From the IMG/VR virus record IMGVR_UViG_3300020420_000012, positions 1 through 64,000 of that record: 64,000 bases of DNA; one strand, given 5' to 3'. Every line of letters begins with the position of its first letter. Position 1 is the first letter of the stretch. This document shows, one piece after another, positions 6,234 to 63,515 of this stretch. A model generated the notes under the pieces. That model did no database searches, had not been told where the DNA came from, and worked only from the letters and a program-made list of their open reading frames with translations. This DNA comes from a virus. A program made the position numbers and the translations under genes.

Positions 6234-7214
6234 ATGAAAAACTTTAATTACGTAGGATGGGATAGCCCACACCGAAAACTTGCTAATGTATTTTGGAAAA
6301 TCAACAGATACTGCAATTATTCATGTTCTTATTGCTGGCCTCACGCACATTCGAATAAAAAAGATTTTCTTGATGAAAATACATACTTATTAGCTATTGA
6401 TCATATGATAAATCAGTTTAAAAAAAATGGATTTGATGCTATAGGATGGGGGTGGGCTGGTGGAGAAGTAACTTTTAATCCACATTTTTTAACAATATTA
6501 GATGAGATTCAATCATATAAAATGAAGATGACTACTAACTTAGTTACTAATCTTTCTCAATCTTTAAAATGGTGGAAAATTTTTGTTGAAAATACTAAGA
6601 AATTTAAGAAAGTAAGAGTAAATGCCTCTTGGCATAAAGAATATCTAAAAGAAGAAAATAAAAAATTGCTATTTAAAGAAAAACTTGTTTTTTTAAAAGA
6701 CAATAATATTTCTACTGTTGTAAATTGCGTAATGTTACCTGGTGAATTAGAAGAAATGAAAAAACTTACAGATTTTTTTGATAAAGTTCAAATACCGGTT
6801 ATGATAAAAGCTTGTCGCGATGGTGGTAAAGTAATTAAAGGATATACAAAAGAAGAATTTGATTATGTACAAAAACAAATAAAACATAAAAATCCTAAAG
6901 TTATGCTTACAATAGATGATGATAATAACGAATATTATTATAGTTCAGCAGAACAGCTTATAGCTGGATCAAACTTAAATTTTTTAGGTTGGCAATGCAC
7001 AGCAGGTTATCAGTCTATTACAATAAGTGAAAATGGAACTGTTACAAGAGGTAGCGTTTGTAAGCCACAGATTCTAGGAAATATTAAAACTGGATTTAAA
7101 ATTTTTGATAAAGTAGAAAAATGCATTACAAATTGGAATTGTCATTGTGGTTCTGACTTAAAAATGCCAAAATGGAGATCAGATGAATATAATATGTCTG
7201 AAGTGGGGCGATAA
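6234..7214 (+). CDS. Radical SAM protein with C-terminal twitch/SPASM-like cysteines
   Basis: This 326-residue enzyme is predicted to cleave S-adenosylmethionine at a [4Fe-4S] cluster. The cluster motif CxxxCxxC is Cys27-Cys31-Cys34 (CNYSCSYC), followed by a GGE-type motif in GWGWAGGEVTFNP. The C-terminus has a second cysteine set (Cys255, Cys276, Cys297, Cys303, Cys305), typical of an auxiliary-cluster twitch/SPASM region. The substrate is unknown; these enzymes often modify peptides or sugars. The gene opens a plus-strand set of three overlapping genes and is opposite in strand to the surrounding fibre genes. Its message is predicted to be leaderless. It is distantly related to the radical SAM gene at 61292-62317. 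Confidence 0.85.
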   Translation: MKNFNYVGWDSPHRKLANVFWKINRYCNYSCSYCWPHAHSNKKDFLDENTYLLAIDHMINQFKKNGFDAIGWGWAGGEVTFNPHFLTILDEIQSYKMKMTTNLVTNLSQSLKWWKIFVENTKKFKKVRVNASWHKEYLKEENKKLLFKEKLVFLKDNNISTVVNCVMLPGELEEMKKLTDFFDKVQIPVMIKACRDGGKVIKGYTKEEFDYVQKQIKHKNPKVMLTIDDDNNEYYYSSAEQLIAGSNLNFLGWQCTAGYQSITISENGTVTRGSVCKPQILGNIKTGFKIFDKVEKCITNWNCHCGSDLKMPKWRSDEYNMSEVGR

Positions 7215-40607: not shown

Positions 40608-40615
40608 TATTTATT
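40608..40615 (-). promoter_or_regulatory. Late-like box AATAAATA, 5 nt before ATG
   Basis: The plus strand TATTTATT gives AATAAATA (7 of 8 bases of the late consensus) on the minus strand, with exactly 5 nt before the ATG at 40602. It lies at the 3' end of the cytochrome b gene. Confidence 0.55.
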
Positions 40616-41864
40616 CTTTTTTATAGACAGCACCTCGTAATGCCAATGGGCTTGTCGCTTGTAATATTGGTGTATTGATACCAACAGGCAAAGGTTTTGT
40701 TGGCTCAAATTTTGGCAACAGTGGTAATAATATTAGAAAATGAAAGAAGTAATATCCTGTTGCTAATCTACTTAACGTAACATATATTCCTTCAGCTGGC
40801 ATTGCACCGAGATATCCAAGTGCTATACAGTCAATAAACAATATCCAAAAGAATATTTTATATAAAGGTCTAAAATTTGAACTACGTATAGGCTGTCTGT
40901 CAAGCCAAGGTAAAATAAAAAGTACTACTATTGCACCAAACATTAATAGTACACCGCCTAATTTATCAGGTACCGCACGCAGTATAGCATAAAAAGGTAA
41001 AAAGTACCATTCAGGTACAATGTGTGCGGGTGTAACCATTGGATTTGCTGGTATGTAATTATCAGGATGACCCATAAAATTAGGAAAGAAAAACACTGCT
41101 GCTGCGAAAAATGTTAAGAATATACCTAGTCCAAATAAATCTTTTATAGTATAATATGGGTGAAACGGTATAGTGTCTTGTTTTCCTTTAACATCAATAC
41201 CTATAGGATTATTAGAACCAAATCTGTGTAATGCTACTAAGTGTAATATTACAGTGCCAACTATTACGAAAGGTAACACAAAGTGTAAACTAAAAAATCT
41301 ATTTAACAATGCGTTATCAACACTAAATCCTCCCCATAGCCATGTAACGAATTGTTCACCTACCAGTGGTATTGCACTAAACAAGTTTGTTATTACTGTA
41401 GCACCCCAAAAACTCATTTGACCCCACGGCAGTACATAACCCATAAATGCAGTTGCCATCATTAATAGTAATATAAAAACGCCAAGAATCCAAAGAAGTT
41501 CACGCGGTGCTTTATATGAACCATAATACAGTCCACGAAATATATGTATGTACGTAACTATAAAGAAGAAGCTAGCACCATTCATATGAATGTATCTTAT
41601 TAACCAACCGTGATTTACATCTCTCATTATTCTTTCAACTGAATCAAACGCATAGTCTACATGAGCAGTATAATGCATACTTAATACTATACCAGTTACA
41701 ATCATAATTACAAGGGATATGCCTGCTAAAGAACCAAAGTTCCAAAAATAATTTAAATTTTTTGGTGTAGGATATTCGTTAAGTTCGTGATTCATAAACG
41801 TAAATATGCCAAGCCTATGATCTATCCAATTAACTACAGGATTTTTAAATTTAGTTTTTGCCAT
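40611..41864 (-). CDS. petB: Cytochrome b of ubiquinol-cytochrome c reductase (complex III)
   Basis: This 417-residue integral membrane protein is a full-length cytochrome b, which carries haems bL and bH and the quinone sites of respiratory complex III. The ligand pairs are His93-x13-His107 and His194-x13-His208. The Qo-site motifs [12 protein letters not shown] (about 142-153) and [13 protein letters not shown] (about 284-296) are intact, and eight membrane helices can be seen. It lacks the insertion after PEWY that I recall from Rhodobacter and looks more like Rickettsiales/mitochondrial forms. No Rieske or cytochrome c1 gene is in the window, so it must join host subunits. Its ATG overlaps the preceding stop (TAATG) and has no ribosome site, implying coupling in the ribonucleotide reductase operon. 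It is flanked closely by phage genes. Confidence 0.95.
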
Positions 41865-57667: not shown

Positions 57668-58627
57668 TTATAGTCCGTTTGGTACTATGATGTAGTGTAT
57701 TGACAATACGACTCCAACCGAAGCTGCAAGTCCAACCATCATTTTAAGAAAGTCTTTTCCAATCAGAGGGAATACGACTTTAAACTTTTCCTTACCAGTC
57801 ATAGTAGCCATAGCCAATTCACGACCACAAAGAAGACCAACGAATACCCATGTTGTTGACATTGGAATATCATTTAGTTCTTTAAAGAAAAATAGAATTA
57901 GCCAGTAAACACCATCAATAATTGTCGCAGATCTTACATAACGTGTGTTATGTTTTTCCAAAACAATTTGCTGGATTTTACCACCACCTTCTCTAAACAT
58001 CCACCATAAGCCGGCTATAAAAACAAAGCTAATGCCGACCATAAGATCGGCTGGTATTTGTCTAGGAAGGAATACTGCAATATTTGCCATGTCATGCGAT
58101 AGCCACGTGAACCATAAGAATCCTGTAGTTATCCATTGACCTATTCGCCAATATCGTTTATGTTCTTCCTTTACTGGCTTAGCTTCATCTAGAATTTTAG
58201 TTACTCCAATCCAAATAGCATATGCAGCAACTGCTGCTACTGCATAACCCATCATGGACTTCATTAACATTTTTTCTAAAACAAATGTGGAAGCAAACGC
58301 CGACAATACTAAGAAAGAAGTACTAACAGGTACACCTAGTCTTGTAAGTATTAAAAGTAATCCCGGCGCTGCGGCATGATACCATTGAATGTCTTGGAAC
58401 GGAATCTTATTAAGTCGTCCATAACTAATATCACCACCATTGGTGTACCAACCATACCACAAAGTATAAAGGAGAACTGCCGAAGCCGCTCCCCACATAA
58501 CTTTCCAATTAAATCTCTCATTGTTTGATGCAATCCATGTACCGAGAGTCTGTACTGAATCGTTAGCAATTACGGAATATGCGGCAAATAAAAAACCCAC
58601 AAACATCCATAGAGTTACTAGTTCCAT
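57668..58627 (-). CDS. PiT-like inorganic phosphate transporter/permease family protein
   Basis: This 319-residue polytopic membrane protein has about eight to nine hydrophobic helices. Two related PiT signatures are visible: VIANDSVQTLGTW with VPVSTSFLVLSAFAS in the first half, and LSHDMANIAVFLPRQ with IPMSTTWVFVGLLCGRE in the second. This inverted duplication is typical of PiT/Pho-4 transporters. It could import phosphate in a phosphate-poor ocean during infection, but the substrate is not proven. A GGAGAAATTACT site precedes the ATG and a strong terminator follows. Confidence 0.72.
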   Translation of the reverse strand: MELVTLWMFVGFLFAAYSVIANDSVQTLGTWIASNNERFNWKVMWGAASAVLLYTLWYGWYTNGGDISYGRLNKIPFQDIQWYHAAAPGLLLILTRLGVPVSTSFLVLSAFASTFVLEKMLMKSMMGYAVAAVAAYAIWIGVTKILDEAKPVKEEHKRYWRIGQWITTGFLWFTWLSHDMANIAVFLPRQIPADLMVGISFVFIAGLWWMFREGGGKIQQIVLEKHNTRYVRSATIIDGVYWLILFFFKELNDIPMSTTWVFVGLLCGRELAMATMTGKEKFKVVFPLIGKDFLKMMVGLAASVGVVLSIHYIIVPNGL

Positions 58628-61290: not shown

Positions 61291-61319
61291 ATTATACACT
61301 ATTTTCTCTTAGATGTACA
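61291..61319 (-). promoter_or_regulatory. Sigma70-like early promoter (TGTACA-17-TATAAT)
   Basis: On the minus strand TGTACA (61319-61314), 17 nt and TATAAT (61296-61291) serve the 53-residue gene. The upstream radical SAM frame runs through this promoter and its stop TAA lies in the -10 box. Confidence 0.75.
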
Positions 61320-62317
61320 CAGTTTTTTTCACTTTTTTTTAATCCATATTTAATAACTTCTAACTCTTCTTCTGAATAGCCATACATAATATCATCATTG
61401 TCTTCATCTCTCCATTCATCAGTGTCTTCACCCTTATGTATTAACGGGTCTATTGAATATCTTAGTTTAGGAAAGAATTCCGGAACGAGATCATCAAAGA
61501 ATTTTTTACACTCGTCTAACCTGCCCGGCAAAAGCATATACTCGATGTTAAACTTTCCGTCAACTTTTTCTCTGTAAATTTCTTCTATCTTATCTATTAT
61601 CTTGCCGTGATTTGTAAATTCTTGATGAATGCTTAAACGAATTCCTCCAGCGTTTATAAGCTCTCTTAGCTTCGAAGCGTTGGCGGTACCGTTCGTGTTA
61701 GTGTGTACCTTATAACCAAAGCTGTTAACGTGTCTTACCATCTTCATATATTCTGGATTGATGGTTGGTTCACCGCCAGTAAATCGAAATGAAAGATCCT
61801 TACCCTTTGTTTGACTCACAATGTTATCGAAGCCTATCTTAAATCTTTCGAAAGAGAGATGTGGACTAAAATTATCATGAACGTAACTCGGGCAATACGA
61901 GCAATCATAGTTACATCTTTTAGACATTATCCAGTTGATTCTAACGTGATTTTCTTTACCTCCCAAGTAACCAACTAAAGTTTTGATTTTTTCGTCCTTC
62001 AGTATTTCAACATTTTTTGTCTTTTGAAGATACTTAAAGTCTTTTTTTCTTTTCGACTTTAAGATATAGTGATCGGCACCACAATGGCACTTACTAACCG
62101 GACATCGTATCGGCTTGTCCGGCAGCTTGAATTCAGTAAAGATGTTACCTAACTCACCACCGTTAGCACAAACGCTTCCAAAGACTCTTCCGTCTCGTCT
62201 GACCGATAAAAAATTAAAACCAACACCACAGTACCAGTTTTGAAAAGAGTTACAGTTAACCTTGATGTAACTTGATCTTGTCCTTCTCAGACCATCTTCG
62301 GTGTCTACCATTATCAT
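61292..62317 (-). CDS. Radical SAM protein with N-terminal twitch domain
   Basis: This 341-residue protein has an auxiliary-cluster (twitch) cysteine set first (Cys30, Cys50, Cys72, Cys77, Cys79) and then a radical SAM domain with CNYDCSYC (Cys135-Cys139-Cys142) and GGEP at 181-184. The order is the reverse of the protein at 6234-7214. I recall an annotated family of N-terminal twitch radical SAM proteins, which fits. The substrate is unknown. It starts 12 nt after the gene at 62330. Its final ~10 residues are read from a promoter sequence and may be non-native. Confidence 0.85.
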   Translation of the reverse strand: MIMVDTEDGLRRTRSSYIKVNCNSFQNWYCGVGFNFLSVRRDGRVFGSVCANGGELGNIFTEFKLPDKPIRCPVSKCHCGADHYILKSKRKKDFKYLQKTKNVEILKDEKIKTLVGYLGGKENHVRINWIMSKRCNYDCSYCPSYVHDNFSPHLSFERFKIGFDNIVSQTKGKDLSFRFTGGEPTINPEYMKMVRHVNSFGYKVHTNTNGTANASKLRELINAGGIRLSIHQEFTNHGKIIDKIEEIYREKVDGKFNIEYMLLPGRLDECKKFFDDLVPEFFPKLRYSIDPLIHKGEDTDEWRDEDNDDIMYGYSEEELEVIKYGLKKSEKNCVHLRENSV

Positions 62318-63029: not shown

Positions 63030-63197
63030 TCTCGAAAAGGTTACGGGCCGAAATTTTTCCAGGAAAAAAAATTTTATAAAAGGTTTCTGTAAAAAAGTTC
63101 TGTGCTCTCTAATACGCGAACCAAACTAGTGGCCTGTTACATGACTGTGCGATTCTGCCAATATAAACCCCTATACTGCTGACGTCACACAGATGAT

Positions 63198-63326
63198 CAC
63201 AGAGAGGTCCTTCGATATATGTGGTAGACTACATGCCTACCGTACTCGTTACGCCTCTCTGTGTGTATATGGGGGCCGTTGTCATGACATCCATCCTACC
63301 GACCTATCGGCCCCCTGGTAGGATGG
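63198..63326. ncRNA. Predicted structured RNA with H-type pseudoknot
   Basis: The 655-nt stretch 63017-63671 has no clear gene. Within it, 63198-63207 pairs perfectly with 63254-63263 (10 bp). GGGGGCCG (63271-63278) pairs with 63308-63315 (8 bp), and CCATCCTACC (63291-63300) pairs with 63317-63326 (10 bp). The last two helices interlock, which defines an H-type pseudoknot with loops of 12, 7 and 1 nt. A leftward promoter at 63487-63515 would transcribe it on the minus strand as a leader RNA of the gene at 63016. Strand and function are inferred. Confidence 0.5.
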
Positions 63327-63334
63327 GATACGTT

Positions 63335-63460
63335 TTATACTCCGACTCTGGTTCCCTGGGTAGTACCACACCTGTAAACCCCGATGACCTTCTGCTTCTG
63401 ATATCTCACAACTTCTCCATCAGCCACCCTGTCGGTTACTATCGCTATGTCATTATATAG
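63335..63460 (-). pseudogene. Possible remnant small gene behind GGGAG-ATG-ACA-TAG
   Basis: Behind the promoter at 63487-63515 the usual GGGAG leader is followed by ATG ACA TAG, a two-codon frame. The neighbouring frame is open to TAA at 63335 and reads like protein (TDRVADGEVVRYQKQKVIGV, YRCGTTQGTRVGV) but has no start. A one- or two-base change near the start would explain this. It may instead be a genuine minimal leader frame. Confidence 0.3.
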
Positions 63461-63486
63461 TACTCCCTTTTTTTCTTTATATACTT

Positions 63487-63515
63487 ATTATACCACGGTT
63501 TCACAGCAATGTACA
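63487..63515 (-). promoter_or_regulatory. Sigma70-like early promoter (TGTACA-17-TATAAT)
   Basis: On the minus strand TGTACA (63515-63510), 17 nt and TATAAT (63492-63487) precede a GGGAG leader. It would transcribe the structured stretch and then the genes at 63016 and 62317. Confidence 0.72.

What the first reader, a model, noticed from the sequence alone, without database searches (positions are those of the whole stretch)
63198..63326. Perfect H-type pseudoknot plus 10-bp stem in a GC-rich geneless stretch
Three perfect helices (10, 8 and 10 bp) lie within 129 nt, two of them interlocked. GC-rich helices are very unlikely by chance in an AT-rich genome. A leftward promoter would transcribe it. 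Candidates include a regulatory leader for the radical SAM operon, a riboswitch-like element or a noncoding phage RNA. An in-frame TAA 8 nt before the pseudoknot (minus strand) also recalls viral readthrough elements, a weaker idea.
Basis: partly seen in the sequence, partly recalled or inferred. Interest (0 to 1): 0.7.

Follow-up and report, generated by a model that had tools for sequence, protein, structure and literature searches.

The report
Mobile pseudoknotted RNA of marine phages
A group of uncultured ocean viruses that infect bacteria carries a previously unlisted RNA of about 185 letters, tied into a knot and kept in shape by paired mutations over wide sequence change, sitting where such viruses normally keep a small early gene.

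Summary
The pseudoknot is real, and compensatory changes prove it. It is the 3' third of a larger RNA, window 63271-63454 on the minus strand: a three-way junction (Pa, Pb, Pc/Pd), an invariant linker (AGUAUAAAACG) and the H-type pseudoknot (S1 10-11 bp, S2 7-8 bp). I found it in 48 viral records. On 15 sequences, 97.9% of cells in 39 pairs are standard pairs and 28 pairs have changes on both sides. Rfam, cultured phages and bacterial genomes gave no match. A sigma-70 promoter at fixed distance, a Shine-Dalgarno and a conserved start-stop (AUG ACA UAG) precede it. The promoter plus RNA occupies slots that hold small protein genes in relatives. In the window's phage it lies 23.5 kb from its usual neighbour gene, which there has neither RNA nor promoter. 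The 10-bp stem is a separate structured element. Function is not shown. I favour a stand-alone early phage RNA narrowly over a portable 5' leader.

The parts
63487..63515 (-). sigma-70 type promoter TGTACA-N17-TATAAT (TG before the -10); predicted start of transcription near 63480
   Evidence: -10 lies 36-41 nt upstream of the RNA in all members outside the L239-L253 group
63443..63474 (-). Shine-Dalgarno (AAAGGGAG) and start-stop reading frame AUG ACA UAG
   Evidence: sequence; AUG-(1-3 codons)-UAG kept in all members checked, as AUG ACA UAG, AUG UUG UAG or AUG GAU UAC GGA UAG
63271..63454 (-). whole conserved structured RNA element
   Evidence: cmsearch with R2: 154 bits, E 9e-41, 63270-63454
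63431..63435 (-). helix Pa 5' strand CCGAC (pairs with 63342-63346)
   Evidence: two-sided changes at 5 of 5 pairs
63342..63346 (-). helix Pa 3' strand GUCGG
63422..63428 (-). helix Pb 5' strand GGUGGCU (pairs with 63383-63389)
   Evidence: two-sided changes at 6 of 7 pairs
63383..63389 (-). helix Pb 3' strand GGUCAUC
63350..63380 (-). hairpin Pc/Pd: GGUUU-ACA-GGU-loop-ACC-CAGG-GAACC
   Evidence: 100% paired, one covarying pair in each of Pc and Pd; predicted independently by RNAalifold
63331..63341 (-). highly conserved linker AGUAUAAAACG
   Evidence: alignments A3, A5
63317..63326 (-). pseudoknot stem S1 5' strand (pairs with 63291-63300)
   Evidence: 100% paired in 15 sequences, two-sided changes at 8 of 11 pairs
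63291..63300 (-). pseudoknot stem S1 3' strand
63308..63315 (-). pseudoknot stem S2 5' strand (pairs with 63271-63278)
   Evidence: two-sided changes at 7 of 8 pairs
63271..63278 (-). pseudoknot stem S2 3' strand; 3' edge of conservation
   Evidence: in L083 similarity to the window stops right after this strand
   Evidence: present without the RNA in L002 and L003; two-sided changes at 6 of 11 pairs in 5 sequences

Best explanation
Shown: this is a new family of structured phage RNA. It is placed just behind its own host-type promoter, read leftward, and folds into a three-way junction plus a 3' H-type pseudoknot. Inferred: it is an early-expressed functional RNA gene that works as an RNA in its own right, for example by binding host translation or RNA-decay machinery during takeover. 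A Shine-Dalgarno and start-stop codons at its 5' end load a ribosome and release it before the fold, so that translation neither unfolds the RNA nor leaves its 5' end bare. Its 3' end would have to be made by processing, because no terminator follows.
For: Covariation in all six helices against shuffle and slide controls and the same nested fold predicted blind. 48 viral records at E below 1e-25, one copy in each of 15 larger records searched whole. Promoter at fixed distance. Promoter+RNA takes the place of a small protein gene in two unrelated slots: L003 has a 53-aa gene where the window has the RNA, and L191-L233 have gene MQFKKQIK... where other phages have the RNA. In the window's phage the usual neighbour gene (39753-39583) is syntenic but has neither RNA nor promoter, so the RNA is not tied to that gene. 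The start-stop is kept in three different spellings. The other consensus promoters of the window's phage mostly drive small ORFs through the same promoter-SD-ATG block.
Against: No intrinsic terminator follows the RNA, so it is probably the 5' part of a longer message. In the neighbour-gene context its 3' end lies about 9-22 nt from the next Shine-Dalgarno, which suits a leader. No transcript data, target or partner is known. In one subgroup (L239-L253) an 80-85 aa frame runs through the RNA.
Confidence: 0.42

Rival explanations
1. Portable cis-acting 5' leader: a riboswitch-like sensor, a put-like antitermination element or an mRNA stabiliser that acts on whatever operon lies behind the promoter.
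For: Always the first element after a promoter, no terminator behind it, next Shine-Dalgarno about 9-22 nt downstream in the usual context. manA and wcaG RNAs of T4-like marine phages are such leaders (PMC2864571).
Against: Downstream genes differ (membrane protein MPSP..., gene MKFIKEIK..., or ferredoxin-like gene about 250 nt away behind another structured element); single copy per record; relatives run the same downstream gene from the same kind of promoter without the RNA; no conserved alternative fold seen in the alignment.
Confidence: 0.4
2. Protein-coding gene with an overlapping RNA structure; versions such as the window's are broken genes.
For: In L239-L253 an 80-85 aa frame (MEKE...) is open through the whole RNA in all 15 loci checked, despite indels.
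Against: pN is about equal to pS in that group; the frame is closed in W, L001, L083, L088, L092 and L234-L236 while the helices stay paired; the outgroup L234-L236 lacks it, and the tree needs only one or two gains.
Confidence: 0.08
3. Readthrough, frameshift or bypassing element for a longer protein.
For: A pseudoknot downstream of stop codons recalls viral recoding signals.
Against: The start-stop lies about 120 nt from the pseudoknot, further stops follow, the downstream frame is not conserved, and in the window no ORF follows.
Confidence: 0.03
4. Chance folding.
For: About one perfect H-type knot per 64 kb is expected by chance at these settings.
Against: 112 two-sided compensatory cells against 32 in shuffles and 2-15 in slid versions.
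Confidence: 0.005

Closest known systems
manA (RF01745) and wcaG (RF01761) RNA motifs of T4-like marine phages (PMC2864571)
   Same: Structured RNAs in marine T4-like phages, listed there as riboswitch candidates and found mostly in potential 5' UTRs
   Different: No Rfam match even at relaxed threshold; different linked genes; gene-like slot swapping; start-stop codons at the 5' end
T4 stable RNAs C and D (from memory)
   Same: Stable phage-encoded RNAs other than tRNA, function unknown
   Different: Those lie in the T4 tRNA cluster; no sequence relation was tested beyond Rfam
HK022 put RNA (from memory)
   Same: Promoter-proximal structured phage RNA, a possible model for the cis reading
   Different: put is two simple stem-loops; here a junction plus pseudoknot with start-stop codons
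Type III antitoxin RNA (ToxI-like, from memory)
   Same: Compact H-type pseudoknot RNA of phages and bacteria
   Different: Those are tandem repeats of about 35 nt beside a toxin gene; here a single 184-nt unit

Membership tests
Any Rfam 15 family (manA, wcaG, glnA and HDV-like included) | Covariance model match at or near the gathering score | tested here: not met
   Window at gathering threshold: 0 hits; E-value search of the window, L083, L236 and L239: only chance matches far below gathering
manA / wcaG type phage riboswitch candidates | Located at the 5' end of a message in T4-like marine phages | tested here: met
   Promoter, RNA, gene order
manA / wcaG type phage riboswitch candidates | Linked to a consistent metabolic gene set, with expression control | tested here: not met
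   Only three downstream gene types, two without any family match; expression control itself not testable
H-type pseudoknot | Two interlocked helices supported by covariation | tested here: met
   helices 5 and 6
Type III toxin-antitoxin RNA | Tandem pseudoknot repeats beside a ToxN/AbiQ-like gene | tested here: not met
   One copy per record; neighbour genes tested are ferredoxin-like, radical SAM or without family
HDV-like ribozyme | 7-bp P1 beginning with G at the cleavage site, P3 hairpin, catalytic C in J4/2 | tested here: not met
   S1 is 10-11 bp and starts with C; no conserved P3 or J4/2 C in alignment A5
Recoding pseudoknot | Slippery site or readthrough stop 5-9 nt upstream within a conserved frame | tested here: not met
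   Frames closed differently between members
Stand-alone phage small RNA | Discrete stable transcript acting in trans | not testable with these tools
   No RNA-seq held

The most novel reading that the evidence does not exclude
A new functional class of phage RNA: a mobile, single-copy RNA gene that occupies early takeover-gene slots and works by docking a ribosome on its start-stop codons directly against a knotted RNA domain. The stop codon lies 9-10 nt before helix Pa, about where the front edge of a terminating ribosome would sit.
Probability: 0.15. Interest if true: 0.85.

Novelty: new variant of a known kind. Interest (0 to 1): 0.62.

Why it matters
It adds a well-supported RNA family, including a pseudoknot proven by covariation, to the early region of marine T4-like phages for which no isolate with the usual neighbour gene is in the phage collection. 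RNA and small protein genes swap in the same promoter slots, which suggests that some early 'genes of unknown function' of such phages are RNAs that protein-based annotation misses. The alignment and model make the function directly testable with engineered RNAs.

Tried and rejected
Two IMG/VR pattern scans with miscounted spacers found nothing and were repeated correctly. Bacterial and archaeal genomes: 58 pattern hits, all rejected as chance by the covariance model. T4 gene-60-like bypassing (L001/L082 have GGA UAG) was considered and rejected: no downstream ORF in W, and a stop codon (TAA) before the MPSP start in L088. Local hairpin GGCC-GAUA-GGUC competing with S2 exists in W but is not kept in L086 or L088. 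tRNA-like 3' end (S2 is usually followed by A, giving CCA) rejected: the C's are paired and the stack is too long. Group I intron core rejected on helix order. Alphaproteobacteria class search could not be centred.

Full report
What is there. The window is part (1-64000) of an 81,635-base uncultured viral record of a marine T4-like phage. Perfect pairing alone is weak evidence: about 1.2 such knots are expected per shuffled 64-kb window, although only 2 of 2000 shuffles of the local 500 nt contain one. The minus strand folds better than shuffles (z -3.0) and better than the plus strand (z -1.4).

How the family was found. Relatives of the downstream ferredoxin-like gene gave L001, whose upstream region is 78% identical to the window's. 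Exact motifs gave L082 and L083. L083 is a related phage with a different neighbourhood, and its similarity stops exactly after the 3' strand of S2, which sets the 3' edge of the element. Two relaxed motifs and relatives of the gene MPSPSEIQ... that follows the RNA in L083 brought the total to 48 viral records with E below 1e-25, three of them cut by contig ends.

The structure. A hand-made structural alignment (24 sequences; 15 submitted as A5) has six helices: Pa, Pb, Pc, Pd, S1, S2. 97.9% of 579 cells pair; 28 of 39 pairs have two-sided changes, with 112 such cells against 32 in shuffles and 2-15 in slid controls. The alignment was made with the structure in mind, but RNAalifold on the same columns finds the same nested helices unaided and extends Pd by one pair, and the divergent group L234-L236 replaces Pa (AGGUU/AACCU) and Pb (GAGAUUG/CAAUCUC) wholesale. 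G-U pairs on the minus strand show which strand is the RNA. The best conserved stretches are the Pc/Pd hairpin and the linker AGUAUAAAACG.

Surroundings. A TTTACA or TGTACA-17-TATAAT promoter lies at a fixed distance upstream in all members outside the L239-L253 group, where the -10 lies up to about 20 nt further upstream, followed by a Shine-Dalgarno and a start-stop frame: AUG ACA UAG in most, AUG UUG UAG in L248, AUG GAU UAC GGA UAG in L001 and L082. UAG is followed by 9 or 10 nt and then helix Pa. No intrinsic terminator follows. The window's phage has other consensus promoters of this kind, most of them in front of small ORFs.

Mobility. Loci L191-L233 have promoter, gene MQFKKQIK..., MPSPSEIQ gene; L083 and others have promoter, RNA, MPSPSEIQ gene; L234 has promoter, RNA, gene MKFIKEIK..., which is followed by the MPSPSEIQ gene. 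In the window's phage the MPSPSEIQ gene is present and syntenic (39753-39583, with neighbours 84-92% identical to L083) but with neither promoter nor RNA, and the RNA lies 23.5 kb away. There it precedes a second structured element and a ferredoxin-like gene (phrog_3704), in the slot where L003 has a 53-aa gene. Each of the 15 positive larger records has one copy.

The second element.

Coding. In 15 loci (L239-L253) a frame of 80-85 aa starting next to the predicted transcript start runs through the RNA and stays open despite indels, but pN is about equal to pS, and tree and outgroup suggest a late gain. I read it as a frame laid over the RNA, not as the reason for the RNA, with low certainty.

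Known families. Rfam has no match. No RNA match in 50,697 phage records; the hits cover the promoter only. The MPSPSEIQ gene is likewise absent from them. The model finds nothing in HTVC008M, P-SSM2, Sf-CH8 or AG-345-E02. The genome-collection pattern hits fail the model. T4-like marine phages are known to carry the manA and wcaG riboswitch candidates (PMC2864571) and other Rfam RNAs (PMC9964418); this is not one of them.

Mechanism. Shown: family, fold, strand, promoter position, start-stop, mobility. Inferred: early expression by host polymerase, ribosome release before the fold, function in trans. The portable 5' leader is nearly as likely (0.40 against 0.42): absence of a terminator and nearness to the next Shine-Dalgarno favour it, while gene-like slot swapping, single copy and indifference to the downstream gene favour the stand-alone RNA.

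Noticed in passing
window 63050-63263 (-): Second conserved structured element (covarying hairpin plus UAUAGGGGUUUAUAUUGG region) upstream of the ferredoxin-like gene, shared by W, L001, L082, L003 and L002; function unknown.
   Followed up: partly
window 40611-41864 (-): Complete cytochrome b gene (Cytochrome_B and Cytochrom_B_C, E 1e-77 and 1e-44) in a phage, between the ribonucleotide reductase gene and the GIY-YIG-like gene; a respiratory-chain subunit as an auxiliary gene.
   Followed up: partly
window 57668-58627 (-): 319-aa multi-pass membrane protein with an NDSVQTLGT motif that recalls PiT phosphate transporters (from memory); no Pfam or PHROG match.
   Followed up: no
L239-L253: 80-85 aa frame (MEKE...) overlaps the whole structured RNA, with an apparently leaderless start and a stop codon overlapping the ATG of the next gene; possibly a young gene laid over an RNA.
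   Followed up: partly
L273 (G000 64-81.6 kb): Row of small genes resembling 2OG-Fe(II) oxygenase-like proteins followed by glycosyltransferase-like genes (judged from sequence only) beyond the window's end.
   Followed up: no
window 6234-7214 (+) and 61292-62317 (-): Two different radical SAM genes in one phage.
   Followed up: no
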